Shown piece by piece: positions 23,599 through 44,941 of a stretch of DNA of 64,000 bases. Made by a program: the position numbers and the translations under genes. The stretch lies in contig OY987268.1 in assembly GCA_963920665.1 (NCBI GenBank), forward strand, positions 21,392,501 through 21,456,500. The letters are read 5' to 3'. The number at the start of each line of letters is the position of its first letter. Positions within the stretch are counted from its first letter, which is position 1. The notes beneath the pieces are model-generated. The model was not told the origin of the DNA and did no database searches. It saw nothing but the letters and a program-made list of their open reading frames with translations. This DNA is from Straminergon stramineum (lineage: Eukaryota > Streptophyta > Bryopsida > Hypnales > Calliergonaceae).

Positions 23599-23609
23599 CA
23601 TGGTTGTTC
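23599..23609 (+). repeat. left terminal inverted repeat of the hAT element
   Basis: CATGGTTGTTC, matching the complement of the right end at 10 of 11 positions. The next 80 bp, with ACAACTCGACA and CGTCCAACACGTC, is conserved in the deletion derivative at 52693-53314. Confidence 0.88.
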
Positions 23610-23784
23610 CGGCGGACAGTTCGACAACTCGACAAACACGACGTCCAACACGTCAAGTAGACCCTCTTGTCCGTCTAATAGAGTCAAACTTACCTTTGAC
23701 TTTTAAAAAAAATTTTACCCTGCCCGTGAGGCCACCTGGATGCCATGTGGTAGACACGTGTCTTCCACGTAGCATCCTAAAGGG

Positions 23785-24247
23785 GCGCATGCGGGTGTGG
23801 GCGACCTCGGGTTTGGGCGACCACGGGTGTGGGCGACCACGGGTAGGGCGACTTCGGGTTCAGGCTGGTGGGCGACCGCGGGTGTCGAGTACGTGGCAAG
23901 CTACGAAGCAAAGACACGAAGTAAGAACCCAAAGAGAAGTAACGCCCCACAATTACCCGCGGTCGCCCCCAAAGACCCGCAGTCGCCTCCCAAGGGACCC
24001 GCACGCGCCCCAAAGACCTGCAGTCGCCCTCCAAAAGACCCGCACACGCCCTTGTACCCGAGGTCGCCCCTCCCAGGACCCGCACGCGCCCCTGGACCCG
24101 CAGTCGCCTCCTCGAACCCGAATGCGCCCTACCAGACCCATAGTCGCTCCCCGAGATCCGTGCGCGCCCCCTGGAGACCACGGGTTCAACCGGTGGTCGC
24201 CCACCCGCACGCGCCCCATGACCAACTCTCACCCGCGCTCGCCCCAT
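23785..24247. promoter_or_regulatory. subterminal and upstream 14-mer array, left end / RING gene
   Basis: Dense copies of a motif close to ACCCGCRGTCGCCC, with the variant ACCCGCACGCGCCC. The first part (23785-23885) is in reverse orientation and the longer second part (23945-24245) is forward, pointing to the RING gene. The array starts 186 bp from the left end of the element. It is followed by a TATTTATCC segment at about 24249 that may be the core promoter of the RING gene. Its role as transposase-binding and promoter array is inferred. Confidence 0.75.
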
Positions 24248-24440
24248 CTATTTATCCACTTGCCCAAGACCTTTTGGGCACCTTTCATTGAGGCTTCTTG
24301 TCTTGTATCCTTTAGTGGCTACATGCGTGAACCTTGACTATTTACTATTTATTACATTCATCCACCCTTCTTACCTTAGTAGTTGTGGACCACCTAAACT
24401 CCCAAAAGAGTTTTTTGAGCCTTGGACACGACAATCATTG

Positions 24441-26933
24441 ATGGCCACTGGAGTTAACAATGCCAGGGCATTGCCTATCTCCGCAGCTGCACAGACCGCC
24501 GGGGCATTACGGAAGGCTGCCAAAGACAAACATCGCAAGCGTAGGGGCACTATTCATCGGAAGCGATTGCACGTGCTCAATAGTGAAGCCCACCTTGCTT
24601 TTAAGGGTTGGAATGAAGAACCAGAGCCTTGGACAATACAGACCTATGAAGACTACATCGAGTGGTGCCACATCGGCAAGTTCTTTCCTTTATGGCATCA
24701 TCATTATAATCGGCACACCAATAAGGCCAACTTGAAGTACTGTGAGAATCCAGCATTCCTTCAAAGATGCATTGAATTGTGGCAAGTCCTCTACAAAACT
24801 GCCTTTGTAGATAGGAACGAGGTCCCCCTCTTCCTTGCTAGAGGAGCATATGCTGAGGTCGCTCTAAACAAGGAGGTTGATTGGAGCACAATCAAGGGAA
24901 GTACGTATGTCACTCGTCCAGAGAGTGGTTTCATCCCAAAAGGAGTTTTAGCTTTTCCTGAGGGGGGACTCGGTCCTATTCGAAGTGCATACAAAACGCA
25001 AACCCTTGCCACTAAGGTTGACACTGAGGAGTCTGAAGAAGATGATGACTCTGATGGTACGCGCGTCCATAGGGTCATACGAATCGTGGAGCAATCTGTT
25101 TGCCCCAATGAGGTTCAAAATGAAGTTGTAGAAGGATCCGCGACATCCACGGGACAACGACCAAGGCAACCATCTAGAGTACGGCGTTCAACAATACGAG
25201 TGGGACCCGCATCGATTCCAACTATAGTTCCTAACCCATCACTGCCAACACAGCGCACAAATGACGTCTTCGACTTTGGGCCCGATGAGGACACGGCTAT
25301 GGAAGAAACTAATCGTGTTCCCATTTCTCCATCAACAATGGGCTCAAGCCATGACATTATGACTTTGGCAAAAGCTCTGGACCTCCTCAAGACCAAAGAT
25401 GTTGAAATTTCTTCACTACAGAATGAAATGAGGAAATTGCGATGTGAGTGTGAACAAAAAAGTACACTCATCTCTCAACAAACTACAGAACTGCAACGCC
25501 TCCGTAAGAAAGACCCTGACACTTTCACTTTGTCGGATATGGATGACGCCTTTGTTGAGCAGAACCTCCAAAATGTGGACAAGGTTGTGGGGGACCTTAC
25601 CAACCATATCCTTCAGCGTTCTCCTCTTGCCAAGCGTACTAAACACTCCCCCATCATTCCAAATACACTTCCTACTATTGTCACAAGATATACTACCAAT
25701 GACACAATTGACCTCAATGGGACCCAAGATTCTCTTTTGTTTCCTGTGGTTCCATCAATTATTCAATTGGAGAAAGACCATGGACTTCAAGAAGAAAATA
25801 AGATGCTTCGAAGAAAGTTGGCTGAGTTGACTACCACATACTACCATTGGAAGGTCGCCTGCATTCTCTCCGTGGATAGATCCCAACAAGTTGCGAAGGA
25901 GCTAGAGAAAGTTTCTAGAAACTTTGTTGCAAATGCTCCTAAACGTGAGAATGGACTGACGTCATGGGCATTGTTGGAGGACATGTTTCCCAATAACATG
26001 TGCATGGTGGAATTGCCACAAAAGGAGGTCATAGATTGGAGCAGAAATGGTTGGGACCACCAAAACCAAATGTCTAGCCACATAGAAGAGAAGAAACGAA
26101 TGCTATTGTGGCCCAAGCCTGCACCTTTTGTTTTGGACCATACCAAATGCCCCATATGTCTTGAACAATTTGGCCCCGAATGGGGTTGGGCACTAGGATC
26201 TTGTGCGCATGTATACCACCCCCAATGTCTCATCACACAATGCTTGATTAGACGACGTTGTGTGATTTGTTCAGCACCATTCCATGATCGCCTATATACC
26301 ATGTTCAACTTGACGACCTACATGCCTCCTTCTTGGGAACACACACGTGATACTATGGCTGACACAACCTTGTGGGGCCGAGATTTGGTTTGGAGTTGGC
26401 GAGAAGGACAACATGATCAAGAAAAAGGACCTGCTAGCTCGCAATTGAATTGGGAAACAGACCCAGACGAAATTGCCAGAGTTGCACCAAGGCTCATGGG
26501 AAAGGGGCCACAAAACGAAGGGAGGAGGGCATTCTTCTTCCAATGCCTTGGTGGATATTCGGACAAGACCTCCTCAACCTTCAAGTGGGGTCCTCATCCG
26601 CAACGACACCGTTGGAATTTAGAAGGAGAAAGGGTGGCTAATCAAGATGATAGTGCCTCCCTAGAAGACTTGACTAGTATGGCTTACCTGGACTCTATGT
26701 ACGGACCATATTACCAAAGTCAAGCACTTGACTACTTGTTGGAAGCACATTCTCCGCAAACAACAAGGACCCTCCAAGCTCTACAGGACTCCAACGTGTT
26801 GCAATCAATTTTGAAGGCAGACGGACTAGCTTCACAAACCCGTGCAAAGCGAAAGCTAGGAGTTGGGGAAGCATCGACCTATGAAGAAGGTGAAGGAAGT
26901 GGCTCTCAAAACAACCCAAATGTAATTGACTAG
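24441..26933 (+). CDS. RING-H2 zinc-finger protein with WCHI-type N-terminal domain (hAT cargo)
   Basis: Intact intronless frame of 830 residues. I chose the ATG at 24441 because the homologous domain of the sibling genes starts shortly after it; the frame stays open upstream to 24288. Residues 31-152 form a domain shared with the genes at 29643 and 37382: basic RKRRGTIHRKR, GW at 56-57, WCHI at 75-78, FFP at 81-83, VDW near 147. The middle has Glu/Gln-rich coiled-coil-like segments. Residues 570-610 form a C3H2C3 RING-H2 finger (C570, C573, C588, H590, H593, C596, C607, C610). RING-H2 fingers usually act in E3 ubiquitin ligases, so protein ubiquitination is the likely role; the substrate is unknown. 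The intact frame contrasts with the damaged neighbours. Confidence 0.85.
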   Translation: MATGVNNARALPISAAAQTAGALRKAAKDKHRKRRGTIHRKRLHVLNSEAHLAFKGWNEEPEPWTIQTYEDYIEWCHIGKFFPLWHHHYNRHTNKANLKYCENPAFLQRCIELWQVLYKTAFVDRNEVPLFLARGAYAEVALNKEVDWSTIKGSTYVTRPESGFIPKGVLAFPEGGLGPIRSAYKTQTLATKVDTEESEEDDDSDGTRVHRVIRIVEQSVCPNEVQNEVVEGSATSTGQRPRQPSRVRRSTIRVGPASIPTIVPNPSLPTQRTNDVFDFGPDEDTAMEETNRVPISPSTMGSSHDIMTLAKALDLLKTKDVEISSLQNEMRKLRCECEQKSTLISQQTTELQRLRKKDPDTFTLSDMDDAFVEQNLQNVDKVVGDLTNHILQRSPLAKRTKHSPIIPNTLPTIVTRYTTNDTIDLNGTQDSLLFPVVPSIIQLEKDHGLQEENKMLRRKLAELTTTYYHWKVACILSVDRSQQVAKELEKVSRNFVANAPKRENGLTSWALLEDMFPNNMCMVELPQKEVIDWSRNGWDHQNQMSSHIEEKKRMLLWPKPAPFVLDHTKCPICLEQFGPEWGWALGSCAHVYHPQCLITQCLIRRRCVICSAPFHDRLYTMFNLTTYMPPSWEHTRDTMADTTLWGRDLVWSWREGQHDQEKGPASSQLNWETDPDEIARVAPRLMGKGPQNEGRRAFFFQCLGGYSDKTSSTFKWGPHPQRHRWNLEGERVANQDDSASLEDLTSMAYLDSMYGPYYQSQALDYLLEAHSPQTTRTLQALQDSNVLQSILKADGLASQTRAKRKLGVGEASTYEEGEGSGSQNNPNVID

Positions 26934-28182
26934 ACATTTGTAGGAATCATGCAATTTAGCCTTACCTCCCATCATAATAGATGACAAGGGTTAGGTTTTA
27001 GTTACACTATGTTTCTAGTTGTTTTGGCAAGTACGATGGAGTGGTTTAGGGTTTGCTTCTTTCATTCCACTTCTACGACTTCCTAGCATACCTATGTACG
27101 GCAATTCCATATGGCATTGATTTTTATTTAATACTACCTTTTTTTCCTCTCTACCAAAGCACCAATTTCTGAAATCATGTCGAGAATGATCTTTTCGAGT
27201 TCTTCCAAAAATAGTTTGTATGAATCAAATCAACAAAGCTCCTAAAGTTTAACTTTTCAAATTAATTTCACTTGCATTGAGAAGAAAACTAGGTCACTAC
27301 TCACTAGAGTGGAGCATCATTGTCCAATTGGATATTTCCTTTCATATTCTTTAAAATCGTGAGGTTCTAATTATACGAAGCTTTTCCTCTAAGCTTTCAA
27401 GATACTTGGCCAAAGAAGGAATAAAAGGGGTTCAAATACAACATGCCCCTTTTCGTGGATGTTGACTTGTTGACTTCACATTACCATACCTTCAAATGGT
27501 TCACCCTGTCCTTGGAGGTCAAAATTCAAATTCATAAAAAACATCAGTAGGCCAACTTACATATAAAACCTACCTAATTCCTCAATATCCATTGTAATTT
27601 TCTTCAAATTACGCTAAAGCTAGAATTCTAAAAAATCCTATATACAAGGAGGAACAATGCAGCAAATCACCTGAGATAAATAAGCTCAATAAATTTCCTC
27701 GATTAATATGGTATTTGGGGCATAATTGGTTTTTCGTTCTCCACTATTCATATGAAAATCATTAATACAAGTTGTACTGTAGATTTCATGACGACATTCT
27801 CACAAAATAGTGAAAATACTATGTCAACTTTTACAGTCAAGAATCAAGAACTTCCCATCAATCCCATGTTCCTATTCGATTGTAATTATGTGCAAGAATC
27901 CCATTCCATTCATCATACCATCACCTTCTCCCAAAACATGAGAGAGACATATTCATCCATAGAGAAAAGTTGTAAGATCCCAAAATGGTGTGGCATTTTC
28001 TCCCTTCCATGCACACCACTAGTGTGCCCACACCAATTTAACTATTCTAGTACACACATTGCTTCAAGACACCTTATACATTGTTTTATCTCAAAACATT
28101 GCATTTCTTTATAACACTAGGATAGGCAAAATACAAAATAATCATGATGAAAGTATTTATCCTCATTGTATTCCTAGGTATT
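26934..28182. other. gene-free spacer inside the hAT element
   Basis: AT-rich sequence between the convergent ends of the RING gene and the minus-strand pseudogene. No coding, array or repeat signal is seen. It presumably contains the transcript ends of both genes. Confidence 0.6.
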
Positions 28183-29643
28183 TTATTTTGTGTTGAGGTA
28201 GTCCTTCAAAATGGGCTCCGGACCCATTTGCTGTAATTCTGCATCAGACTTCCCTATGCTAGCTCTATTCCACTTATACCAATCCGAAAAAAAACGACTT
28301 TCTGCCCTCAAAGCTTCCAACTCCAATACCATCAATGGTAATCTTTGCTCATGGAACTTCACCAACTTCTCAAGCGTTGCTACTTCTCCAACAACACTAC
28401 CATATGTTGAGGAAGAAGCCAAAAGCTCTACTTTTGGAACGTGCTGGACGGCAACCTCGTAATATTCTTTCTTCTTCTCTATTATTTGAAGTTCTAGGCT
28501 TCGCCTTTCATTCTCTGCCTGTTGACGTTTGCGGACAAGGGTTCGAGTTTTGATTCCCATATCAAATAATGGTCCATTTTATGCACCTTCCCACTCTTCA
28601 TTTCCTTCAAATAAAATTCGCGATTTCTTTTGAAGGAATGGAAGCCCTTGTCATTCTCTTCGATGACGTTCGTTATGGCCTTCAACCGTTGCTTCAACAC
28701 CTCTACGAAAGTGGGATTCATTTCTTGCTCCTTCAAAGTTTTCAAATTGCTCGTTCTTTGCACACAATGCTAATTTTGCACTTTCTATTTTGGCAAGCAA
28801 CATTGCCTCTTCATTTTCTGAATCGCTTCCTCCACCACTCCCGTCACCCTCTCGCAAAACGGGGTCCACTCTCCTAGCCACCCCATCATCCATGCCTTCT
28901 TCATCCGTATCTTGTACTATGATCGGCTCTTGAGCTGATTGTCCACTTTGGTCGACTCCCACATCCACAGCTAGCCTAGATTCTTGTATGGCAACCTCCT
29001 CCTCATCGCTATGGAAAGAATGTCCATCATATTCATGGGTGTGTAGATCAGAGCTAGAAGTCTCTGACCAAACCACGCTTTCATCGCGAACAAAATGACT
29101 TCCCACGCTTCACCTTGGATAACATCTTCTTTACATCCACAGGTTCATCTGGTGGTAAAATTTTTGCAGTCTCTAGAATGATCGCAATAGGGACCTCCTT
29201 CAATGTTGACCAATCCACCTCCTTCTTTAACACATATTCAGATACACCATTCTCACAAGAAAGAAACAAAAATTGTTGTTTCGGTAAGTTGAGTCCTCCA
29301 AATACAAGTGCTTCCACACCTCACAACATCTAAGTATGAAGCCCTCATCCTTGGAGTATGCAAGATTTACTTTGTTTTGCTTCAAATGCTCTTTGTGTCG
29401 ACACAAGGGAAATAATTTGCTGATGTGGCACCAATCCACGTAATTTGCAAACGGTTTGTAACTCCAAGGCTCAGGTTCATTTTTCCAACCTTTAAATGCC
29501 TTAATCTTTGGATGGATCAAAATGGCCACACGCTTCTTGTGAATTTTACCGGACCGTTTCCGACCTTGTCGCGGATGAGCTTCATCTCTTGTCGTGTAAG
29601 GCGTTGATTGTGCAGGCGTCAATGGTGGGGGCTCATTCTCCAT
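28183..29643 (-). pseudogene. WCHI-domain coiled-coil gene, broken by several frameshifts (hAT cargo)
   Basis: Starts at the ATG at 29643. Residues 27-110 match the domain of the RING protein and of the gene at 37382: basic GRKRSGKIHKKR, GW, WCHI at 71-74, KLFP, NLAY, EVW. The frame then shifts near 29265, 29100, 28750 and 28555. Pieces in the shifted frames continue the expected order: a KKEVDW segment, an acidic Ser/Glu-rich stretch, then Glu/Lys-rich coiled-coil sequence ending at 28183. By gene order it parallels the gene at 37382, and the two are likely an ancient duplicate pair. No catalytic domain is seen. Four indels make it a pseudogene, unless they are assembly errors. An array of the 14-mer lies upstream at 29975-30280. 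Confidence 0.75.
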
Positions 29644-29879
29644 AGTGCTCAATCTATACGATCAATTCTACTCGGATACTATGCCAAATATACCAAGCCT
29701 AAAACCGTGGTTGTCCAAACTTAAATCTATTACCTCGTGGTAATTCACATTTACAAATACATCAACATGAGCATTTACAATCACAATCAAGTTTCAAACA
29801 ATTCGATGTGATTTACAATCAATGGATGGAAAGTGACATGAGGAGACATAGAATATCCTCCTCACAACACCCACCTCCC

Positions 29880-29935: not shown

Positions 29936-29974
29936 AAAGATGGAAGATTGCAGGTTTAGGGTCTGATTTTGTAC

Positions 29975-30280
29975 CCTCAGTCGCCTCAGGGCGAGCACGG
30001 CTCTGGATGGGGCGCGTGCGGGTCCAAGGGGGGGGGGGGGGGGGGCGCATGCGGGTCGGCAAGGCGACCGTGGGTCCAGGACCACCGCCAACGACCGCGG
30101 CTGATGGCGATTGCGGGTCTGGGGGCGACTGCGGGTACGGTGGGGCGACAATGGGTCTAGCGCGACCGCGGGTGAGGGGAACGCACATTGGGGGCGCATG
30201 CGGGTCTGGACGACCGCGAGTCTGGTGCAACCGCGACTGGGAGCGCGTGTGGGTTTGGGGGCGACCACGGGTCCCAAACC
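29975..30280 (-). promoter_or_regulatory. 14-mer array upstream of the gene at 29643
   Basis: Copies of the reverse-strand motif GGGCGACCGCGGGT and its variant GGGGCGCATGCGGGT, oriented like the minus-strand gene they precede. It includes an 18-base G run at 30028-30045. It is far richer in CpG than the surrounding DNA. Confidence 0.75.
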
Positions 30281-30554: not shown

Positions 30555-32144
30555 CTATGAGAGGACAGAGTCCCGAAAGACGAATTCGGGTGGTTTCATG
30601 AACCATGGTTTACCCATGAGGAGGTCCACCACTTGCGCACATGTTGGTCTTTTGTTAACATCAACATCAACTAGTTCACGTAACTTCATGGCAAAATACC
30701 TTGATGACTCATGATTTCTAAATAAGTCCTTGTCGTATTCAACCATGTGTTCTATGTTCATGCGTTGGGTCAACTTTCCAATGGAATAAGAGTTGGACTT
30801 CACCGAATATTTGTAGGTCGCTTTCATCACATCTAAACTCGTATCTGAACCCTCTGGCCCAAACAAATAGAACAGCTCTGGAGCTGCCCACCAACGGCCC
30901 GTCCTCTCAGCATCAAGTTTTTCCTGTTTTTCATATCCAAAATGCGAGGGAGCTCCTTCTTGAATACGACTTGCAATTCCCCAATCACAAATCCCAATGT
31001 TGATCTCTTCGTCCGAGAAGGGGGGATAATGCAACAATATGTTCACAGGTGACAAGTCATTGTGCAGCACCCCAGTATTGTGCACGAGACTTGTCACATA
31101 AACCAGGGCCCACGCCAACTTCGCCTTGTGTCTTCGAAAGAGGCTAATTTCTTTTTGTTGCTGGCCTGTAAGTTGCTTGACCAACTTGATTTCATGCCAT
31201 TCCGCATGTGGCACCACCTTCTCATTCAAATGAAGCAACTCTTTGAAATTACCACCATTCCACCACAAAGTGTATGCTTCCATTGTTTGGTCATGGACAG
31301 CTAGGAATTTAATAATGGCCGGATGATTCAATGGGCATACCAAAGCCTCCACTGACCGTTCCACCCTCGCATCGCGTTTGTTCCTTTGCTTTGACAATTT
31401 CCCCGCGAAATGTACATGCGCTGGGATCATGGACATCCCTTCAATGCGTACCTTGCGCACCTTTGCATATCCTCCTTGACGGTCAAATCCAGTAAGTGGG
31501 ACCACCTTGGCCTCTGAGTAGACCCACATGATACATGAACCACTATCTCTTGTAAATGCAACCTTCAATGCATCTATCTGCCACCCCATACCCCTAGCTT
31601 CAGACCTTGACAATCTTTTTGCTGCAATTTGCCACCAATCCATCTTCTCACGGAACTCCTGGGCCCTATCCGTTTCTCCAAATCCAGGCACTATAGGTCG
31701 CAACTCAAGCATCAACTTCTTGGTGTTGAATATACCAGTTTGTAGGCAATTGCCAATCCATGTTTGCCATTGGTTGAAATACACTTCATCCACATCTGCA
31801 TAGTCCGAAGATTCCTTGCATTTCCTTGTAATAAATTCCTCCAACTCATCCTTCAAGGATTGGATGCCTGCCTCTTTATTTCTCAAGTATTTCCTCTCCA
31901 AATATTGTACATTTTTTTCCTCATACCATTGGAGACAAGCCTCATGCGTATAGGTCGTATATCGTGTTGGAGGATAGGTAGGGTCCTTATCGTGTGCTGT
32001 CTTGGACTTCTTTGTCTTGGATGGTCTGGCACCCCCAATTACCTCCTTGGTAGTTATATCTACAACAAATGCTGCAGGATTATCAAGGTCCTTCTCCCAA
32101 GCCGATATCCGACCCGTACTACTTCCTTCCTTTGAAGTAGACAT
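30555..32144 (-). CDS. protein-kinase-like protein with HND / DWG motifs (hAT cargo)
   Basis: Intact intronless frame of 529 residues from the ATG at 32144. The frame stays open upstream, but this ATG gives a polar start and sits about 90 bp from the promoter-like block. Residues 1-210 are a charged region I do not recognise. Residues 215-520 look like a protein kinase fold: a glycine loop near 219-230 (GFDRQGGYAKVR), a possible ATP-site lysine at 249 (AGK), catalytic loop HNDLSPVNILL at 361-371, DWG at 387-389 where DFG is usual, and APE at 421-423. The catalytic Asp363, Asn368 and Asp387 are present, so activity is possible. HRD is changed to HND, which removes the usual Arg linked to activation-loop phosphorylation. 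The C-terminal KRPTCAQVVDLL segment fits kinase subdomain XI. Confidence 0.85.
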   Translation of the reverse strand: MSTSKEGSSTGRISAWEKDLDNPAAFVVDITTKEVIGGARPSKTKKSKTAHDKDPTYPPTRYTTYTHEACLQWYEEKNVQYLERKYLRNKEAGIQSLKDELEEFITRKCKESSDYADVDEVYFNQWQTWIGNCLQTGIFNTKKLMLELRPIVPGFGETDRAQEFREKMDWWQIAAKRLSRSEARGMGWQIDALKVAFTRDSGSCIMWVYSEAKVVPLTGFDRQGGYAKVRKVRIEGMSMIPAHVHFAGKLSKQRNKRDARVERSVEALVCPLNHPAIIKFLAVHDQTMEAYTLWWNGGNFKELLHLNEKVVPHAEWHEIKLVKQLTGQQQKEISLFRRHKAKLAWALVYVTSLVHNTGVLHNDLSPVNILLHYPPFSDEEINIGICDWGIASRIQEGAPSHFGYEKQEKLDAERTGRWWAAPELFYLFGPEGSDTSLDVMKATYKYSVKSNSYSIGKLTQRMNIEHMVEYDKDLFRNHESSRYFAMKLRELVDVDVNKRPTCAQVVDLLMGKPWFMKPPEFVFRDSVLS

Positions 32145-32280: not shown

Positions 32281-32284
32281 GACC

Positions 32285-32535
32285 AAGAATGGCGACCGCG
32301 GGTCTGGGCGACCGCTTAAGTACCCGAGGTTGCCTTGGGGCGCGTGCGGGTCTGGCACATGCGAAACGGGCGACCGCGGGTATGGGGCGACCACGGGTAT
32401 GGAGGCGACCGCAGGAGGGGGGACTGTGGGTTGGGGCGACCGCGGGAGGGGGCGGCTGCGGGTTCCAGAGGTCCTCGGGGATGGAGGCGACCGTTCGCGT
32501 AGGGGCGACTGCTGGTCCTGGGCGACCACAGGTAC
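32285..32535 (-). promoter_or_regulatory. 14-mer array upstream of the kinase gene
   Basis: Repeated GGGCGACCGCGGGT-type motifs in the orientation of the kinase gene, with variants CGACCACGGGT and CGACTGCTGGT that look like CpG decay. A CGGGTACTTAAGCGG segment close to the gene resembles CGGGTATTTAAGGGG upstream of the gene at 37382 and may include the TATA-like element. Confidence 0.75.
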
Positions 32536-33611: not shown

Positions 33612-33724
33612 TATGAGGGTTGAGACGGTTAGTATTGAATTTCGTACGGAAATGTATGAGGTGCAAGGTTGCACCACATACATTTCCATCCGAAATTCAA
33701 TACTGATTTCTTATAACTCTCATG
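33612..33724. repeat. near-perfect inverted repeat with almost no loop
   Basis: Two arms of about 55 bp meet at GGTGCAAGGTTGCACC. The pairing includes AGTATTGAATTTCG and GGAAATGTATG with few mismatches. It could be a small foldback MITE or the source of a hairpin transcript. No target duplication is obvious. Confidence 0.6.
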
Positions 33725-34019: not shown

Positions 34020-35035
34020 CACGCCCTCACCCACGGTCGCCCCCCAATCCACGAAATTGGGCTCGAAACCACCAGGACCTAAAGTCGCCCCCACCCGCGC
34101 TCGCCCATGACCTGAAGTCGCCCCCCACCCGCGGTCGCCCCCCCCCCCATCCACCAAATTAGGCTCGAACCACCAAAACAAAAGCCCGCGCCCCCACCCG
34201 TAGTCGCCCAAGACCTGAAGTTGCCCCCCACCCGCGGTCGCCCCCCCTCCTCCACCAAATTAGTCTGGAAACCACCAAAACAGAAGACCGCGCTCCCACC
34301 CGCAGTCGCCCAGGACCTGAAGTCGCCCCCAAGCCGCGGTCGCCCCCCCCCCTCCACCAAATTAGTCTGGAAACCACCAAAACAGAAGATCGCGCCCCCA
34401 CCCGCGGTCACCCAGGACCTGAAGTCGCCCCCAAGCCGCGGTCGCCCCTCCATCCACCAAATTGGGCTCGAAACCACCAGGACCCCCACCCGCGGTCGCC
34501 CAGGACCTGAACTCGCGCCCCCACCCGTAGTCGCACCCCATTCCACCAAACTGCCCTCGACAACCACCAGGACTTGAAGCCGCCCCAACCCGCAGTCGCC
34601 CAAGACCTGAAGTCGCCCCCCCACCCGAGGTCGCCCCCAATCCACCAAATTGGCCTCGAAACCACCAGGACTTAAAGTCGCCCCCACCCGCGGTCGTACA
34701 GGACCTGAACTCGCCCCCCACCCGCAGTCGCCCTCAATCCACCAAATTGGCCTCGAAACCACCAGGACCTGAAGTCGCCCCTACCCGCGGTCGCTCGAGA
34801 TCTGAACTCGCCCCCCACCTACAGTCGCACCCCATTCCACCAAATTGGGCTCAACAACAACAAGCCAGAAATCCAACCCCCACCCGCACTCACCCAAAAC
34901 CTGAACTCGCCCCCCACCTGCAGTCGCCCCATTCCACCGAATTGGGCTCAACAACAGCAAGCGAGAAGACCAAGCGCCTACCCGCGGTCGCCCAGGACCT
35001 GAAGTCGCCCCCCACCAGCAATCGCCTCTATCTTA
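34020..35035 (+). repeat. long 14-mer array organised as about ten 100-bp tandem units
   Basis: Each unit carries a CCACCAAATTGGGCTCGAAA segment, then CCACCAGGACCTGAAGTCGCC, then ACCCGCGGTCGCC. Unit spacing is about 95-104 bp (for example CCACCAAAT near 34151, 34252, 34356, 34455). Open frames on both strands are repeats translated, not genes. It is the largest array in the element and the only one with no gene directly downstream, so it may be the remnant control region of a lost gene. Confidence 0.8.
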
Positions 35036-35544: not shown

Positions 35545-36700
35545 TTTAAAGATGGAAAATGAAATGACGAGGAGAAGGGCTTTCCCAAGTCTCCATTTTT
35601 AAAAAACACTTCCTATGTAGATCAAAAGATTTTTTCTTCATGCATCTCATGGTGTTAGTATTTTTTTTGTACATCGTTTCCCCCCAAAGGGAATGTCTCC
35701 TCCAAATGTACTCCCTCTAAAAATTAAAATAGGAAATGGTCATGTTGAATTTTACATGAGCACGAAGAAAAAAAAATTGTGAAGGAGAAGAGCTTCCCCA
35801 AGCCTCCATTTTTAAAAACCATTTCTTATGGAGATCAAAAGATTTTTTCTTCATGCATCTCATGGTGTTAGTATTTTTTTTGTACATCATTTATTCATTT
35901 CCCCCAAAGAGAAGGTCTCCTCCAAATGTACTCCCTCTAAAAATTAAAATAGGAAATGGCCATGTTGAATTTTACATGAGCACGAAGAAAAAAAAATTGT
36001 GAAGGAGAAGAGCTTCCCCAAGCCTCCATTTTTAAAAACCATTTCTTATGAAGATCAAAAGATTTTTTCTTCATGCATCTCATGGTGTTAGTATTTTTTT
36101 TGTACATCGTTTCCCCCCAAAGGGAATGTCTCCTCCAAATGTACTCCCTCTAAAAATTAAAATAGGAAATGGCCATGTTGAATTTTACATGAGCACGAAG
36201 AAAAAAAAATTGTGAAGGAGAAGAGCTTCCCCAAGCCTCCATTTTTAAAAACCATTTCTTATGGAGATCAAAAGATTTTTTCTTCATGCATCTCATGGTG
36301 TTAGTATTTTTTTTGTACATCATTTATTCATTTCCCCCAAAGAGAAGGTCTCCTCCAAATGTACTCCCTCTAAAAATTAAAATAGGAAATGGTCATGTTG
36401 AATTTTACATGAGCATGCGGAAAAAGAAAATGTCAAGGAGAAGAGCTTTCCCAAGTCTCCATTTTTTAAAACCACTTTTGATGTAGATCAAAAGATTTTT
36501 TCTTCATGCATCCCACAGTTTCAGTATTTTATTTGTATATCGTTTCCCCCCACAAGGAAAGGTCTCCTTTTAATGTACTCCCTCCAAAAATGAAAGTAGG
36601 AAATGGTTACGTTGAATTTTACATGACCACATGGATGGATGAAGAAGAAATAAAATGTTAGGAAGAAGGGCTTTTCCAACTCTCCACTTCGTCAACTAAT
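35545..36700 (+). repeat. satellite-like tandem repeat with a dimeric 213 / 220-bp period
   Basis: Five units start (at ATCAAAAGATTTTTTCTTC) at 35621, 35834, 36054, 36267 and 36487, so spacing alternates 213, 220, 213, 220. Units 1 and 3 carry GTTTCCCCCCAAAGGGAA and units 2 and 4 carry ATTTATTCATTTCCCCC, which is a two-unit higher-order repeat of 433 bp. Unit 5 is more diverged. No gene is present. Confidence 0.88.
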
Positions 36701-36869: not shown

Positions 36870-37180
36870 CCTGACCTATGGACGCCCCTGACCCGAGGTC
36901 GCCCCTGACCCACGGTCGCCCCTGACCCGAGGTCGCCCCATACGCAGCCGCTCCCATCATCATGAACTAGGGAAGACCTTTTGGAATCTGAGACCCGCAG
37001 TCGCCCAAGAAATGACCTGTGGTCGCCCTATATGCAGCCGCCCCCTATACCCGAGGTCTCCTTCCAGAAACTGTAATTTTTCCTAAATGGCAGTTTCTGA
37101 ACAGTGGGACCCAGACCCGCGGTCGCCCAAGACCCGCACGCGCCCTCTTCCCGCACGCGCCCTAGGCGACTTCGGGTATT
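36870..37180 (+). promoter_or_regulatory. 14-mer array upstream of the gene at 37382
   Basis: Forward-oriented ACCCGAGGTCGCCCC, ACCCGCGGTCGCCC and CCCGCACGCGCCC copies, matching the direction of the gene. The array ends in GGCGACTTCGGG followed by TATTTAA (37177-37183), a probable TATA-like element. Confidence 0.75.
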
Positions 37181-37223
37181 TAAGGGGATACTGGATTCCC
37201 AAGTCGTCACTTCCTTCGTCGCA

Positions 37224-37274: not shown

Positions 37275-37381
37275 AGTTTGGGCATCTACACGTGTTGTGG
37301 CTTCCACGTTTACGAGTTCATTTCTTCGGTTATATTATCAACAAAAGTCTAGTTCTCTTTACGCTAGAGTGACACGACAAG

Positions 37382-38941
37382 ATGACGAAGAAGAAAGGAG
37401 ATCGCCATAGCAGGCAACAACGTGCCCTTCTTGACCCAGCGGCTAAGGCATATCGGGGATGGTGTCATGTAAATTCCGATTGGACCTTGACGACTTGCAA
37501 GTTATTTGTGGATTGGTGCCATATCGACAAGCTCTTCCCTTACCATCGACACATTCACCATGTGAAGCAAAACCAAGAAAATCTTTATTATTGCAAGGAT
37601 GATGCATTTGTCCAGAGATGTATTGAAGTGTACTGAGCATTGTACGGAAAGCGAAAAATTCCACGGAGCGAAGTCTCAATGGGCATATGCCAAATGGTAT
37701 ATGCAGAGTTACAATTGGGGAAAACGGTAGATTGGATGACCTTCAAGACATCCAAGAATGTCACGCTTCCAGACACAAAAGACATTCCCAGAGCGGGTCC
37801 TTCAAATAATCCTCAGGATGGGCTAGGGCCCAAAAAGAACATTATAGAAGGAGTGGCAGATGAGGATTATGTTTGGTCAACGTCAACTGGAGAATCGGAC
37901 TCCGATGAAGAGCCATTGCCTGAACCTAGGGACAGGATGGAAGATACATCAATGGAAGAAAACTTAGCATTGGTGGTATCAGAAGAAGGCAACATGCAAC
38001 GGACCACACCAACGGATGGAGAACCTTTTATGTCTGTGGAACCGATAGGCGTCCGTCCTCCTGAAGATGACGAAGTGTTCCATTACGTGCAAGCTCGCTT
38101 GCAAGAAATTAATGAAGATAGGTTGGATGGGGAGAGTGAAGCCGAAGAAGAGATTCCTTTGACCTTGATGAATTTGCCTTCCATGGAAGGATTGCATGAA
38201 ATGGAACAAGAACATCAAGGTGTACTTGGAGAAGACAATAAACGGCGGATGAAAGAATCCTATAAAGTGGAGTTGGAGATGCTTTTAAAGGATCTTGAAG
38301 AAAAAGAAAGGGAGTGTGAGATCATCGAGAAGCGAAGCGCACAAGATATTCAGGTTGAGGATGTGGGCACCCTCAAAGAACTAATTCAAGCTGAACAAAC
38401 TCGTTTGGCAGCCCAACAAAGAGAAATGGAACAACTGGAACAATTTTACCTCAAGTTCAATAAGGGAGAAGATGGAGGTTCTAGTTCAAATGTCAATCCT
38501 GTTATGGATGAACGACTTCAAACAATAATGGGAAAATGTAGGATGGAAGAAAACAACCTTGCCATTGAAAAAGGAGGTGTGGAAAAGGCAAGATCGACAT
38601 TGAACCGCTTGAAGGAGATGAAGGATGCAGATCCTATTGACCGGTCGTTGCAATCGGATTCATTGTCTGTGGATGTTGAAGATTCATCATCCACTACGGA
38701 AATAGAGAAGTTGAAGATGAAGTTAGCGTTTGTGAAAAGATTGGAACAGAAGTTGGAGGAAAAGATGTCGTGGCCGAAGGCACACATCAGGTTCATGTCA
38801 TTGTTCAAGAAGTGGTGGATCCAAAATAAGATGTGGAACCATGACCTGACTCTTTTGAAGAGGGAAGAGAGAGTGGCAAGAGCCCAAATAGAATTGGAAA
38901 AGAAGAAAAGGGAAGAACAAGGGGAAATGGATGGAGTATAA
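37382..38941 (+). pseudogene. WCHI-domain coiled-coil protein gene with one in-frame TGA (hAT cargo)
   Basis: A single frame of 519 codons from the ATG at 37382, interrupted only by TGA at 37634-37636. The stop sits where the sibling proteins have the Trp of an E-[LV]-W segment, so TGG to TGA is the likely change. Residues 8-120 carry the shared domain: GW at 26-27, WCHI at 45-48, KLFP at 50-53, NLYY, RC-IEV, then VDW. The rest is acidic and then strongly coiled-coil (Glu/Lys/Gln-rich, 250-433 after the stop). No catalytic motif is present. It may be a structural or DNA/protein-binding partner of the element's other products. Translation could also begin downstream of the stop, but that would lose most of the domain. 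Confidence 0.78.
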
Positions 38942-39819
38942 ATTAGGTGGCTCTTGTTTCTTTTATGACTATGTACTTCTTCCAAGATATATGAAGAAAA
39001 AGGCTTTGTCCTTATTTTTGCTGAAATACAAGAATGTTTATTTTTATTTTTTGTGTATGAAAATGTGATTGCATTTGGATCCAAACATTTGAATTTTTGA
39101 CAAATTTTGATGATTTGAAGTTATGTGAATGTTAATTTCTTGTTAAATTTGTGTAGTGTTTTAAAAAAGAAAAGAATTCTAGTAACTTTGAGTCTACACA
39201 AAGAACCCTCAATAAATTTAAGCTGCATCATCCATGAGAGTTTCAATATAAGTTTATATGGTTGCATTTTTCAGTATTTTAACATATGGTTTGAACATAT
39301 TGTAAATGACAACATTCCCATGCCCTTCACCTCGTGAATGTATGGATTCTTCTTGAGATTTATAATTTGGGAAAAAACATCCTAAAAAGGTACTCAAAAG
39401 AATACTTTTGGAATTGATAGAGAAATGGAAGTTATACATTTTGAGTTGTGGATTCCATGTATATGGTTTGATCAACCAATGTTGTCCCCCATTTTTCTTT
39501 TTAATTTGAAAGAGAAAGTTCTTAATTTTTTCCACATTTGAATACAAGCTAATTCTATTTATTTTTTATTAAGTTTGTTGGAATGGATTTGAAATGAGTT
39601 TCCCTTCATGTGGTTGTTTAAAAAAAAAATTGCATTCTTTAAGTCTATGACCATACTCCCAAAAATCTTTTTTGAAGTATCTATAAATACCACGTGAAAC
39701 CCTTGGATAGTGTTTAGGGTTTAATAAAATCTCTATCTAAACTAGGATGACTTTCATCTAGAAACTCAGTGATGGAATGCTAACGGGATAACAAAAATGG
39801 CCTTGGGTCCTAAAGCGTA
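38942..39819. other. gene-free spacer inside the hAT element
   Basis: AT-rich, with no supported coding region. It presumably holds the 3' end of the gene at 37382 and the distal promoter of the transposase. Confidence 0.6.
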
Positions 39820-40165
39820 AGCGCGGTCGCCCTTCAAGTACCCGAAGTCGCCTCTTGAGACCCGCGGTCGCCCCTTCTACCCGCAGTCGCCCCCCCTGGA
39901 CCCGCAGTTGCCCCCCCTTCCACCCGCAGTCGCCCCCCCTTCCACCCGCACTCGCCCCCCTTACCCGCAGTCGCCTCTTTTTCGACCCACAGTTGCCCCC
40001 CTTGGACCCGCAGTCGCCTCTTTTTCGACCCGCAGTCGCCTCCCTTGGACCCGCAGTCGCCCTTTGATCTGCATGCGCGCCCCTAGTGCAAACCGTCGAC
40101 CCGCAGTCACCTACGGGGCGAGTGCGCCTGTTACGATGTCGCCCGTTTCCTGCACCCATTCTGGC
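39820..40165 (+). promoter_or_regulatory. 14-mer array upstream of the transposase gene
   Basis: About a dozen forward copies of ACCCGCAGTCGCCCC-like motifs, in the direction of the transposase. The first 30 bp contain, reversed, the same GGCGACTTCGGGTACTT block seen upstream of other cargo genes. A TATA box (TATAAA, 40203-40208) follows, 226 bp before the start codon. Confidence 0.78.
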
Positions 40166-40433
40166 TCTCAGGGGGCGACTTGCGGTGCTAGCAGGACGGC
40201 AGTATAAAGCTGAAGGCCCGGACTGTGGTTTTCACCTTACTTCAGGGATGAACTCTTGCCTTGAATCTTCGAAAGAGGCTTCTTGCGGATGTTTGGTTCT
40301 TTGGAGGGCAACGACTTGGTTTGTGTGGTTTAAAAGACCGTTCAAAGCAAGTGGCTTTGCCATTCTTTTTTCTAAATCAAGGCTTTGATTCATATGATAA
40401 TATTGTTTGAAGAACTCATAGGCGAGGAACAAT

Positions 40434-43400
40434 ATGGCTAGTCGGGGTGAGGGGAGGAGGACTACCATTAACGATACAAGGAGAGCCACGAAGGAGTGGG
40501 ACCCTTGGTTGGTTGTAGACATTGATCGTCAATTTGTGGGAAACACACGAACATGTGTTTTCTGTGGGTGGACCTCCGTATTTGTACGAAAGCGGGCATT
40601 TTGTCACTTTGGATTTGGCGGCAGGACTGCATCGGAGCGATGTAAGAAAATCCCATGGGCAGTATTGCAAAAGTTCAGGACTTGTGGTGGGGTTGTTCCA
40701 AAGGAAATGAGCTTTGAACAAATGCATGAGGAGGTTCCAGAATTTGATGTTGTAGACGAGACTGTGGTTGAGCCTATGTTGGAGGGGGATAGGGAGAGGT
40801 CAGAGGAGCCTAGTGCTACGAATGAACCAATGCTCCCTAGTACAGATTCAGGAGATTCCACTCCTCAAACAATTTTGAGAAGGAGGAATAACCCTTCCAT
40901 TTCTAGGCAAACTAGCATGGATGAGGCATTACAAAGTAGCACGAGAGCAAAGTTAGATACCATGTGGGCTTCCTTTTTTTATGAGGCTAGCATCGCGTTC
41001 AATGTTGCGCGCCATCCTGCCTTTGTGAAAGCAGTGAAAGAGACAGCGGCATCAGGACTACAATACCAACCGCCCTCATACAATGCTTTGCGTACAAGAA
41101 TGATAGAGCCAAAGAAAGAAAGTGTTTCTAAAATGGTCACTGAGCGGACAAAGCATTCTATCGAAGTTTATGGAGCGACTATTTGTTCAGATGGTTGGTC
41201 TGATACTAATAGCCGTCCATTACTAAATTTAATGCTCGTGTGTCTTGTAGGGGATGTGTTTCTTGGATCGGTGGACACCATGGGGGAGAAGAAGGACATT
41301 GCGTACACAACCAATATGATGGCGCAATACATAGAAGAAGTTGGCCCCCAAAACATTGTCCAACTATGTATGGACAATGCTGCTGTCATGACGGGGACTT
41401 TGAAGGCATTACAAGAGAAATATCCTCACATGTATACCCAAGGATGCGTAGCACACATTTTGGACTTGCTTTTGGAAGACTGGGCAAAGGATGTCAAGGT
41501 GATGAGAATAGTACGACGTTGTACGCAGATAGTAAAATACATCAAGAGGTACCATTCCACATTGGCTCTCTTCCGAAAGTACTCCCCAGACAAGGCATTG
41601 CGAATGCCTTCTCAAACACGCTTTGCAGTGAACTTCCTCATGATATCACGTGTGGTGGAGTGCAAGTCAGCATTGATGCGAGTGATAATGGATGAGACAT
41701 ATGTGCAATTTTAGGCTAGTTTGGAACGTCGCCAAAATGGAGATGTATTGAGTGCGCGAGCCCGTATAGCGCGGAATGACATTCATGCAGAATCTTTTTG
41801 GGTGGAGTGTGAGAATTTTTTGCACATGGTGGAGCCCGTCATTATTGCTCTCCGAGTGTTTGATGGGAAAGCCCCGGCAATGCCTAAGGCTTGGTTGGTT
41901 ATGAAGACTCTTCAAGAGCACGTGTGGAGCTTGAGAAACAAACCTTTTTTTCTGAATGATGAAACTGCAACAAAGTTTGAGACGCAATTCGAGGCTCGTT
42001 GGAAATTGATGCTCACAGACCTACACTATGCAAGGGCACTCTTAAATCCTTTCTTGATTGAAGTAGGAACCCTTCGTAACGACGGTGTGGCCAAAAGAGC
42101 CTTAAATCGGGTGCTTCGAAAAATGAGCGAGTCATTGGGATTATCATACATAGAGGCATTGCAGGAGCTCACGCAGTTCGAAGAGAAGACAGGTCCTTTT
42201 GACCCCTTAGAAGAGGCTCCTGATATTACACAATGTAAACTAATGCCTCATCAATGGTGGAATCTTGTGGGTGCTAATGTTCTCCCAAAAATTGCAATGA
42301 GAGTTCTATCTTTGACGTGCTCAGCATCATCATGTGAAAGGAATTGGAGCATGTATTCGTTTGTGCACAATAAAGTGCGAAATCGCCTAACCACATCCAA
42401 GGCGGAAGCATTGGTGTATATCTACACCAACAATAAACTTGAACGTGAGAAACGTGGACGCAATCCTACAGTGTTCTACGAAAAGTACCTTATGGATGGA
42501 AATACCTCGGAAGAGAATGAGGAGCCATTAGGTACAGGATCATCAGGGGATGGCGACCCAGTTAGAAGGGCTCGAGCTAATGAGAACATTAGGCTAGTAG
42601 AAGAGCATCTACGTGGAAATATTTGGACAGAACTGATTTGTAGTGAAAAGAATCCTCCACGGAGACACAACTATGGAAATACATTTACAGCTGAGAATAA
42701 TATGTACTACTTTGAGGAGGAGGAGATTCAACGTGCACCGCGAAGGCCCCCGCAACCCTACATCTCTGCTAGGGATAGGAATGTACCTCCTCCAATAAAT
42801 TCATCACCAACTCGGGCAAGTAGTCCCGACAACCCCAATGAAGGCATACATAGTCCAATGCCCATAAGAGCTGAGGAAGCAAGATCTCCAAATGTCGTAG
42901 ATCAAGGTTCTACAAGGGTAATGAACCTACGAAGTGCTGCTCGAGTTGCTGAGGTAAATGAAAGGCAAGAGGAGGCAACACCGCCAACACACGTTGAAGA
43001 TGTTGTGCTTACAAGCGTTCCACTTTCTCCATTACGAAGCCCCTTAAGAACAGAAAATGTGGAATATGATTCAGACTTGCCCTTGCAAGCTGTTATGAAC
43101 CGAAATCGTACGGTGCCCTTAAGTAGAGGAGGAAACGCAAACAATGCTAGGGCGACTAGGTCTATACCAACCCGTGCGACTAGGCCGCCCTTGCATAATA
43201 GTCCTCTTAGGACAGTTGATAATGAAGGCCATGCTTCAGCTCCGCAACCCACTCAACCCTCCTCTATTTCTGGCCCTGGAGAATCATCCTTGCTCATGCG
43301 TGAAGGCACAAGAGGACAGAAAAAGCGATTGAGGAAGATGCAAGAGAGGCTACAAAGAAATCCCAAACGACAGAACCATGTTGTCCAAAGATTCATCATG

Positions 43401-43712
43401 GGTGAAGCCAATTTGAATCGAAACATCGGACAATCCAGTAGAGGCGGACAACATCCTGCATCCAACCTTGATGGAACAAGAGATGCATTGAGGTTGACTA
43501 AATGATTGGTGCAAACTAGCGGCGATGGCGTCGTGGATACTGAAGTGCGGAACGTGAACTCAGAGGTAGAACATGAAGTGCAAAATGAACAAGTACGAAG
43601 GGAGGATGACGAGAATGATAACCGTGATGATAATTATAGGGGGGAGGAGTCGGATGATGATTCTGACCCTGACGCTGATGAGGTGCCTAGTGATTACACA
43701 TTTTCACCGTAA
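40434..43712 (+). pseudogene. BED-finger hAT transposase with two in-frame stops
   Basis: One frame of about 1,092 codons from the ATG at 40434 to the stop at 43710, broken by TAG at 41712 and TGA at 43503. The N-terminus has a BED-type zinc finger (C41, C44, H58, C70). Then comes a DUF659/RNase-H-like region with CSDGWSD (Asp253) and MDNAAV (Asp314), two likely catalytic acidic residues of hAT transposases. After the first stop the frame continues with the helical insertion and the hAT dimerisation domain (SCERNWS, RNRLTTSKAEALVYI). The tail is Pro/Arg-rich and ends acidic after the second stop. hAT transposases cut the element out and insert it, giving 8-bp duplications. The stops fit CAG-to-TAG and CGA-to-TGA changes. 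It is longer than typical family members. Confidence 0.9.
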
Positions 43713-44577
43713 CTTTATAAATATAGATTTAGAGGTAGTGAAGTGGTAATGTAATGCTTTTGCATAATTTTGGTGTGTTGAAGTTTTCTAGCTTAAGTTC
43801 ATAGGCAAATAGCCTATAGATGAGTTTTGTGTAGTATCTACTTTAGTATGAAAGCATGATAGTGTTAGAATTACAAAGTTTTGTTCAATGTCTTTAGTGT
43901 GGACTTCTACAAGTATAGACATGGAGATCTTAACAAAGTTCATGGAAGTACAATTGAAGTAGAAGTTCATTTATAAGATTGGGTCACTACTCTATTAGTG
44001 TGTACAACTTATAAATACAATAATACTAATTATCCTTACTTTTTTCTTGTTTTTGTATCTATTTTTGGTGTAATTATTATATCCAATTGCGATATTGGCT
44101 TCTACACTTCAATAGGAGTAGAAAATTTGAATTAGAAATTCCCAACCATATGTAATAAAAACATGTAGAACTTGGAGGCTCCTATGAATGAGTGAATGAC
44201 CACAGAATGTGAAATACTTAATTTAAGGCTTAGGAGAATGCAATGGCACATGGAAACTGAAGGATCCTAAATCGTGAGCAAGATTGAAATGGTTGTTATA
44301 TCCATGTTTGCAATTGCAACGGCACACGAGGTTGCTCTTAACCTTTAACGGATGGACTAGTGAGTATGAAAATCATCTCCAATGGAACTCTGTAATGTGA
44401 TGTACTTGCCTTTCCCCTCACAAAAATACTCATTTCCGGTATGAGGACTCAGTAAGATCTCTCTTTTGGGAATTGGGACCCAATTTTCAAAGATGGACAA
44501 TTGCATTTATGTCGTATATTAGAAGTTCTTATCATCCATGGAACAAAAGAAATTCCTTGCGTATGGGATAAAGCGAA
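43713..44577. other. gene-free spacer near the right end of the hAT element
   Basis: No coding signal; AT-rich. It probably contains the 3' end of the transposase transcript. Confidence 0.6.
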
Positions 44578-44732
44578 GATCGCCCTTTCCCTTACACCCG
44601 CGGTCGCCTTTACACCCTCAGTCGCCCTGAGTTGGACCCGCAGTTGCCCTGGATTTAGGACCCGCAGTCGCCCTCATTCTGGTACCCGCGGTCGCTCCAC
44701 CTTACCCGCACGCGCCCCACCCGCAGTCGCCT
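44578..44732 (+). promoter_or_regulatory. subterminal 14-mer array, right end
   Basis: Seven or so forward copies of ACCCGCGGTCGCC-type motifs ending about 208 bp from the right terminus, mirroring the left array at about 186 bp from the left terminus. No gene lies downstream, which favours a role at the transposon end. hAT elements such as maize Ac are known to carry subterminal transposase-binding motifs; binding here is inferred. Confidence 0.75.
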
Positions 44733-44930
44733 ATGGTGACGTAGTCAAAGCTTTTCACGTCACTGTTGACAACCCGCCACGTAAGATAAAAAATTTGGCT
44801 GCCCTGCCCGAAAATCCTAAACCCTAATTTCGCGCTCGTCAAATTTGTCTCGTATATGCGACACTCGTCTTATACGACATGCGACATCAGACGAACAACT
44901 CGACACCCAAACCCAAAAACACGTTCGACA

Positions 44931-44941
44931 GAACAACCCTG
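44931..44941 (-). repeat. right terminal inverted repeat of the hAT element
   Basis: Reads CAGGGTTGTTC on the minus strand and pairs with the left end with one mismatch. The 100 bp inside it, including CGTCTTATACGACATG and ACGAACAACTCGACA, is conserved in the deletion derivative at 52693-53314. Confidence 0.9.

What the first reader, a model, noticed from the sequence alone, without database searches (positions are those of the whole stretch)
23599..44941. A 21.3-kb hAT transposon carrying a kinase, a RING-H2 protein and novel-domain genes
Directly seen: 11-bp inverted ends (CATGGTTGTTC / CAGGGTTGTTC), a perfect 8-bp duplication GTTCATGG, and a BED/hAT transposase frame inside. Known: hAT elements make 8-bp duplications and are usually a few kilobases long. 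Inference: the four non-transposase genes are resident cargo of one giant element, not chance neighbours, because all share one upstream motif array that also marks both ends. Regulatory cargo (kinase plus probable ubiquitin ligase) would be new for this superfamily as far as I know.
Basis: partly seen in the sequence, partly recalled or inferred. Interest (0 to 1): 0.97.

Follow-up and report, generated by a model that had tools for sequence, protein, structure and literature searches.

The report
Giant five-gene hAT jumping element
This 21,343-base stretch is one copy of a giant 'jumping gene' of the hAT type that carries four other genes beside its own mobility gene, sits at dozens of places in what is likely a plant genome and keeps its genes in the same order in each of the eleven other gene-bearing copies read; the extra genes likely help the element control or protect itself.

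Summary
The ends (CATGGTTGTTC / CAGGGTTGTTC) and the duplication GTTCATGG are exact and unique in the window. The same genome (G000, 326 Mb) holds 251 left ends with up to 3 mismatches. Of the 40 best right ends, 21 pair with a listed left end (0.16 expected), 18 of them 12.2-25.7 kb apart. Of 12 other copies read in full, 8 have perfect, different 8-bp duplications, one has 7 of 8, three none; the 11 gene-bearing ones keep the order A(+, RING), B(-), C(-, kinase), D(+), E(+, transposase); 6 of 11 hold all five (one with a partial kinase), 4 lack the kinase. Arrays of ACCCGCRGTCGCC mark both ends and stand upstream of all five genes in the window. A, B and D share an uncharacterised domain. 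Kinase and RING proteins have near-full-length relatives down to 31% and 37% identity. Each gene-bearing copy read is partly broken, this one included. That the extra genes are a regulatory or anti-silencing set is inferred, not shown.

The parts
23591..23598 (.). 8-bp target-site duplication, left copy (GTTCATGG)
44942..44949 (.). 8-bp target-site duplication, right copy (GTTCATGG)
23599..23609 (+). left terminal inverted repeat CATGGTTGTTC
   Evidence: 251 matches of the first 33 bases in the genome, up to 3 mismatches
44931..44941 (-). right terminal inverted repeat CAGGGTTGTTC
   Evidence: the last 200 bases match 40 scored places at 97-100%
23784..24243 (.). left subterminal motif array, also upstream of gene A (20 matrix sites, both orientations)
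24441..26933 (+). gene A, 830 aa, open: novel N-terminal domain, coiled coil, RING-H2, conserved C-terminal region
   Evidence: 54 scored genome copies
28183..29643 (-). gene B, frame-broken here; N-terminal domain shared with A and D; open over 487 aa in two other copies
29973..30271 (-). motif array upstream of B
30555..32141 (-). gene C, 528-aa protein kinase with its own N-terminal helical region, open
   Evidence: 82 scored genome copies
32291..32533 (-). motif array upstream of C
34029..35026 (+). internal motif array, about 102-bp tandem unit, no gene directly behind it
   Evidence: a plus-strand array between B/C and D in 9 of 10 gene-bearing copies
35562..36630 (+). 220-bp tandem repeat array, no long open frame
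36891..37177 (+). motif array upstream of D
37382..38941 (+). gene D, 519 codons with one in-frame stop here, open in four other copies; N-terminal domain of A/B, then charged, helix-like sequence
39819..40129 (+). motif array upstream of the transposase gene
40434..43505 (+). gene E, hAT transposase (DUF659 + hAT dimerisation); one in-frame stop; a C-terminal tail as in relatives continues in another frame to about 43712
   Evidence: 45 scored genome copies, 4 of 45 without a stop
44596..44731 (+). right subterminal motif array (7 sites)
52693..53314 (-). short gene-less derivative with both ends of the same family, its left TIR split by a small insert

Best explanation
This is one of many copies of a giant hAT-superfamily DNA transposon, about 20-26 kb where all five genes are present, that carries a transposase gene plus four resident genes, likely moves by cut-and-paste and likely uses the extra genes to keep itself expressed against host silencing. 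Shown: inverted ends, 8-bp duplications, a hAT transposase, a constant gene order in independent insertions, motif arrays upstream of the genes and at both ends, a shared domain in A, B and D, and wide conservation of the kinase and RING proteins. Inferred: the motif array is a binding platform shared by the ends and the promoters, read by the transposase or by the A/B/D N-terminal domain, so that one protein both activates the element's genes and marks its ends. Inferred further: the kinase and the RING protein act on host or element proteins of the silencing machinery, by phosphorylation and ubiquitination, in a role like that of VANC proteins of VANDAL elements. Predicted from decay: present copies are largely silenced, and some copies move or moved with proteins supplied by others.
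For: Ends and duplication. Copies: 251 left ends, reversed-pattern control 0; 21 of 40 right ends pair, control mean 0.16, max 2. Full reading of 12 other copies: 8 perfect duplications, gene order kept in 11 of 11 gene-bearing ones. Linkage of cargo to ends and of A to C and E. Arrays of 3 or more sites in the 11 copies: both ends 11 of 11; before A 10 of 10, D 9 of 9, E 9 of 9, C 5 of 6 (the sixth lacks the start of the gene), B 6 of 9. Leaders of B, C, D homologous, 0 of 300 shuffles for each pair; A/B/D N-terminal domain, tblastn 4e-31 and 2e-24. Wide conservation: 53 kinase relatives, 27 of them over at least 90% of the query, and 9 gene-A relatives; K248, D362, N367, D386 invariant in the 27 aligned. 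Selection: N/S 277/102 private against 38/36 shared for A+C+D, Fisher p 0.0003. Methylation-like decay: 548 of 759 private changes are C>T or G>A.
Against: No activity, expression, methylation or binding data. CpG depletion in array sequence outside the motif equals that of other element non-coding DNA (0.53 and 0.52), so no footprint of protection from methylation. Kinase absent from 4 of 11 gene-bearing copies, D from one, E from one. B has no array of 3 sites in 3 of 9 copies. Leader homology is weak or absent for A and E (A-C 1 of 300, B-E 2 of 300 shuffles as high, the other pairs with A or E 19-70 of 300). The N/S shift is not significant for A (p 0.17) or E (0.20) alone; recurrent C>T changes may enter the shared class. 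Three of 12 copies show no duplication. No copy outside this genome could be seen with the genes together.
Confidence: 0.72

Rival explanations
1. The element is real, but the four extra genes are passive passengers (captured host genes, Pack-MULE-like) without a role for the element.
For: Kinase missing from 4 of 11 gene-bearing copies; each of the 11 gene-bearing copies read, and the window copy, has at least one broken gene.
Against: Near-full-length relatives to 31% (kinase) and 37% (gene A) identity, with kinase residues kept; open copies persist (25 of 82 kinase, 16 of 54 gene A without a stop); shared changes poorer in replacements; the genes carry the same kind of array; no host donor was seen among the best 82 kinase matches, all 90-100% identical, though only the best of 794 candidates are scored.
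Confidence: 0.17
2. The arrays are only transposase-binding sites; their place before each gene lets the transposase autoregulate, and cargo has an unrelated role (for instance host signalling or movement between cells or hosts).
For: Both ends carry arrays from about 186-210 bp inward in mirrored orientation; transposases of hAT elements bind subterminal repeats (recalled).
Against: A, B and D are three diverged proteins with one shared domain that fit a regulator family at least as well; not tested.
Confidence: 0.3
3. A hAT that captured part of a DNA virus (Teratorn-like).
For: Kinase, RING and coiled-coil genes with a common promoter motif are frequent in large DNA viruses (recalled).
Against: No relative of kinase or gene A in the IMG/VR scans made and no paired motif there; no polymerase, capsid or packaging domain reported by Pfam in the eight frames scanned; viral fold matches listed are kinases or unnamed, at 12-19% identity.
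Confidence: 0.04
4. Chance neighbours or misassembly: several small elements and host genes between two unrelated ends.
For: Several arrays could mark nested elements; inverted copies with the same stops exist elsewhere in this assembly; raw reads were not available.
Against: Same order at independent sites with different duplications; no other end pair of equal quality in the window.
Confidence: 0.01

Closest known systems
hAT superfamily (Ac, Tam3, Tol2)
   Same: 8-bp duplications, short CA...TG inverted ends, hAT dimerisation transposase, subterminal repeats (the last recalled)
   Different: Tol1 and Tol2 are 4.4 and 4.7 kb and described with a transposase (PMC10175614, passages); this copy is 21.3 kb with five genes
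Fungal hAT7 and IS3EU elements with TET/JBP dioxygenase (PMC12730594, passages)
   Same: DNA transposons, some of them hAT, with a gene that may counter methylation; the TET-bearing IS3EU families also carry an alpha-kinase gene
   Different: 7-bp duplications in hAT7; fungi; different genes; no array before every gene is described in the passages seen
VANDAL elements with VANC (PMC5735166, passages)
   Same: short motif in dense same-orientation tandem arrays in non-coding parts of the element, changing in number by tandem repeat formation; extra genes beside the transposase
   Different: Mutator-like (PMC13317346, passages); VANC binding and methylation loss are shown by experiment there; no domain in common was reported by Pfam here
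Histone H3-carrying hAT of Pseudocercospora fijiensis (PMC6710886, abstract)
   Same: hAT that multiplied a non-transposase gene to hundreds of copies
   Different: one captured host gene, its copies inactivated, not a set of genes kept open in several copies
Starships and Teratorn (PMC6431247, PMC10175614, passages)
   Same: giant multi-gene cargo transposons
   Different: DUF3435 recombinase, or piggyBac plus herpesvirus; Starships about 5 copies at most in a genome, against dozens of cargo copies here
ToxhAT, now ToxTA (PMC12506042, passages)
   Same: 14-kb cargo element once filed as hAT
   Different: 2-bp TA duplication and 74-bp ends; refiled by its authors as Tc1/Mariner-like

Membership tests
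hAT superfamily | 8-bp target-site duplication | tested here: met
   window and 8 of 12 other copies perfect, 1 of 12 seven of eight, 3 of 12 none
hAT superfamily | short inverted ends with CA...TG | tested here: met
   CATGGTTGTTC / CAGGGTTGTTC in the 12 other copies, apart from one changed base in each of two
hAT superfamily | transposase with hAT C-terminal dimerisation domain | tested here: met
   PF05699 30.5 bits over cut-off 21.4; DUF659 119 bits over 34.7
hAT superfamily | catalytic D-D-E | tested here: met
   D253 (nearly invariant), D314 and E635 (invariant) in 14 aligned; assignment of these as the triad is recalled
hAT superfamily | BED zinc finger | tested here: inconclusive
   Cys/His pattern visible, no Pfam BED match at E up to 1
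hAT superfamily | dispersed copies at different sites | tested here: met
VANDAL/VANC-type anti-silencing element | Mutator transposase | tested here: not met
   hAT domains instead
VANDAL/VANC-type anti-silencing element | dense same-orientation motif arrays in non-coding parts | tested here: met
   1 site in coding sequence, the rest of the 107 element sites outside it; the left-end array is mixed in orientation
VANDAL/VANC-type anti-silencing element | encoded protein binds the motif and removes methylation | not testable with these tools
   needs binding and methylation data
Starship | DUF3435 tyrosine recombinase | tested here: not met
   no such Pfam match in the eight frames scanned
protein kinase (gene C) | kinase fold and catalytic residues | tested here: met
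   Pkinase 49.9 bits over cut-off 31.7; residues invariant; model pLDDT 83.7 matches kinases; HND and DWG in place of HRD and DFG
RING-H2 ubiquitin ligase (gene A) | RING domain | tested here: met
   7 of 10 members match RING models, the window protein below the curated cut-off; profile matches RING finger protein 24 at 2e-7; ligase activity untested

The most novel reading that the evidence does not exclude
A plant lineage of giant hAT transposons runs its own regulon: one motif array unites both ends and five promoters, and a home-grown protein family (A, B, D) together with a kinase and a ubiquitin ligase forms a transposon-encoded counter-silencing system, the hAT equivalent of VANDAL/VANC but with signalling enzymes, maintained over long evolution and spread to some 250 ends in one genome.
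Probability: 0.4. Interest if true: 0.9.

Novelty: new variant of a known kind. Interest (0 to 1): 0.8.

Why it matters
hAT elements are usually a few kilobases long (recalled; Tol1 and Tol2); here a hAT of about 20 kb moves five genes as a unit, and the copies compared differ by about 2%. It shows that this superfamily can keep a resident multi-gene programme, and it offers an unusually testable case of how a transposon may coordinate its ends, its promoters and possibly host silencing through one short motif. The kinase and RING families had no relative from a named organism in the searches made.

Tried and rejected
Linking cargo and transposase in metagenomes by equal contig lengths in the three protein lists: no shared length seen, so no information. 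Nested or composite elements: looser searches for end pairs with exact 8-bp duplications gave only weaker pairs besides this one. CpG footprint of unmethylated arrays: whole arrays look undepleted (0.91-1.06), but outside the motif they equal the rest, so rejected as evidence. Gene A fold: mean pLDDT 44.9, not searched further. Viral origin: nothing specific. GTDB scan with the kinase profile: two short stretches in bacterial records only. Rfam: no match at gathering scores. ToxhAT as a precedent: dropped, its duplication is TA. Copy c5: its right end may belong to another or nested copy, since it has no duplication and a transposase match lies about 2.3 kb beyond that end. Organism: not named by any search; 'plant' rests on Copia-like and calmodulin frames, read as plant-like from recall; the only transposase hits from a named eukaryote are Chara braunii at 23-25%.

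Literature limits: novelty rests on searches of one open-access library; the giant-transposon review PMC6431247 holds no whole-word 'hAT' in its main text. Subscription papers, preprints and Repbase were not searched.

Full report
What was claimed and what is there. The inverted ends and the 8-bp duplication are exactly as stated. Among all pairs of places in the window 0.2-40 kb apart, this is the only one with an exact 8-bp duplication, CA...TG ends and at least 10 of 11 inverted bases; 3 of 100 Markov-resampled windows have one such pair.

Anatomy. Five genes lie inside: A 24441-26933 (+, 830 aa, open), B 28183-29643 (-, broken frames), C 30555-32141 (-, 528 aa, open, protein kinase), D 37382-38941 (+, one in-frame stop), E 40434-43505 (+, hAT transposase with DUF659 and hAT dimerisation domains, one in-frame stop and a lost C-terminal tail). 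A, B and D share an N-terminal domain of about 130-155 residues at about 38% identity (tblastn with A: 4e-31 for D and 2e-24 for B), so part of the cargo is a gene family made inside the element or brought in repeatedly. The RING of A scores below the curated cut-off in the window copy, but 7 of 10 family members match RING models.

The motif. ACCCGCRGTCGCC and close variants: 107 of 110 matrix sites lie inside the element, 1 of them in coding sequence. Within 1.2 kb upstream of the five start codons A to E there are 20, 13, 11, 10 and 14 sites, of which 13, 12, 10, 9 and 13 point with the gene; the farthest of the 13 for B is the one inside the end of gene C. The left array is mixed: its outer part mirrors the right array, its inner part points with gene A. 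The leaders between array and start codon are homologous among B, C and D (0 of 300 shuffles for each of the three pairs); A-C is reached by 1 of 300 and B-E by 2 of 300 shuffles, the other five pairs by 19-70.

Copies in the same genome. The window lies in G000, 326,016,511 bases in 59 contigs. The last 200 bases match 40 scored places at 97-100% (856 candidates), the first 200 bases another 40 over 198-200 bases at 97-100% (790 candidates; 28 further short matches in that list are an internal inverted repeat of the same ends). The first 33 bases occur 251 times with up to 3 mismatches, the reversed control 0 times. Using the 109 left ends that the listings showed, 21 of 40 right ends have a partner on the same strand within 30 kb; 18 of the 21, the window's among them, are 12.2-25.7 kb long, three are 0.8, 3.4 and 3.9 kb. 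Left ends shifted at random give 0.16 on average and at most 2; opposite-strand ends give 1. Ten right-end loci, the window's among them, have ten different outer 8-mers.

Perfect duplications, different from each other and from the window's: ATACTGGT, GACTTACT, ATGGTTGG, CTTGATGT, CATATTTA, AATGAATG, CATGGGAT, GTAATGAA (8 of 12). One has 7 of 8; three (c3, c5, c7) have 3 of 8, that is none. One copy of 3.4 kb holds no gene match but keeps arrays. In the other 11, A is found in 11 (in two pieces in 2), some of B in 11 (its N-terminal part in 10), C in 7 (split or partial in 3), D in 10 (partial in 1), E in 10 (in two pieces in 3); 6 of 11 have all five, one of these with a partial kinase. Order and strands are never violated. 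In c5 the transposase lies beyond the paired right end, so that pairing is doubtful.

Arrays in the copies (clusters of at least 3 sites, 11 copies): both ends 11 of 11; before A 10 of 10 (the left-end array), D 9 of 9, E 9 of 9, C 5 of 6 (the sixth has lost the start of the gene), B 6 of 9. So three copies have B's N-terminal part without its array. Array length varies: 6-17 sites at ten right ends.

Linkage genome-wide. Of the 54 best gene-A matches (1722 candidates), 44 lie 769-948 bp inside a listed left end (control 0.02) and 22 have a listed kinase on the opposite strand downstream, 19 of them 3.5-3.7 kb away (control 0.11). Of the 82 best kinase matches (794 candidates), 38 lie 6-13 kb from a listed left end in element orientation (control 0.12; 0 for flipped strands). 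Of 45 best transposase matches (1071 candidates), 29 have a listed gene A 12.5-23.5 kb upstream on the same strand (control 0.28). Unlinked ones cannot be called free-standing, because the lists are cut.

Age and decay. Pairwise difference among the copies compared is 2.2% on average for A (11 sequences) and 2.4% for E (9). Of 759 private changes in the five genes, 548 are C>T or G>A, in CpG 229, CHG 137 and CHH 182 contexts, as expected of methylated, silenced copies (inference). Without a stop: 25 of 82 kinase, 16 of 54 gene A and 4 of 45 transposase copies. So open copies of these genes exist, while the window copy has three damaged genes.

Selection on the cargo. For A, C and D together, replacement/silent counts are 277/102 among private and 38/36 among shared changes (Fisher p 0.0003); singly C p 0.025, D p 0.008, A p 0.17; E p 0.20. 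B was left out because its frame is broken in the window reference; stop changes were counted apart. Transversions alone give 99/18 and 5/5 over A, C, D and E. The shared class can be polluted by repeated C>T changes, so this is support, not proof. Wider conservation is stronger: the kinase has 53 relatives, from 63% identity downward, 27 of them over at least 90% of the query (one at 31% over 99%), with the catalytic lysine and aspartates invariant in the 27 sequences aligned; gene A has 9, one at 98% and others at 37-66%, three of them over at least 94%; the transposase has 45, the best at 54-58%, the only ones from a named eukaryote being Chara braunii at 23-25%.

How it likely works. Cut-and-paste transposition by E at the TIRs is expected from the family. 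The shared array suggests one binding protein for ends and promoters. Whether this is E or an A/B/D protein is open. A coherent picture is an element-encoded regulon in which sequence-specific proteins sit on arrays, keep promoters on and mark ends, while a kinase and a RING protein change the state of host or element proteins. VANDAL elements provide the working model: VANC binds a short motif that lies in dense same-orientation tandem arrays in non-coding parts and causes loss of methylation (PMC5735166, passages). The array sequence here shows no CpG footprint of such protection beyond the motif itself. The kinase appears dispensable in cis, since 4 of 11 copies lack it, though they may have lost it after insertion.

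Against known kinds. It meets the hAT features tested except that a BED finger stays undecided. It is laid out like VANDAL but is not one. Extra genes in hAT are known from fungi (TET/JBP in hAT7, PMC12730594, passages; histone H3, PMC6710886, abstract), so a hAT with a regulatory passenger is not new in itself. What I found no report of, in searches, is a plant hAT of about 20 kb with a constant five-gene set under one motif array. I therefore file it as a new variant of a known kind.

Noticed in passing
window 52693-53314 (-): Short gene-less derivative with both ends of the same family (79% and 86% identical); its left TIR is split by a roughly 245-bp insert with TTGTTCA on both sides; no clear outer 8-bp duplication.
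   Followed up: partly
window 48595-50854: Another tandem array system with GTCCGCC/GGCGGAC motifs and a 267-bp repeat unit, similar in style but with a different motif; may mark another element family.
   Followed up: no
window 22653-22988: Tandem 28-29-bp repeats with AGTAATTG about 0.6 kb left of the element.
   Followed up: no
window 33631-33704: Hairpin of two 36-bp arms, 92% complementary, inside the element.
   Followed up: no
window 11523-15026: Copia-like retrotransposon frames (named from recall) with strong CpG depletion, observed/expected 0.19.
   Followed up: partly
window 61158-61736 (-): Calmodulin-like exon, recognised from recall.
   Followed up: no
G000 C11:16645929 and 16654695; C11:2156158 and 2170227; C3:28133103 and 28146367; C10:19316789 and 19338277: Pairs of cargo genes in opposite orientation about 9-21 kb apart with the same identity and the same kinds and numbers of premature stops: inverted duplications of copies or assembly artefacts.
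   Followed up: no
P0066: A transposase relative of this family sits in a public MAG labelled Bacilli bacterium, probably eukaryotic contamination.
   Followed up: no
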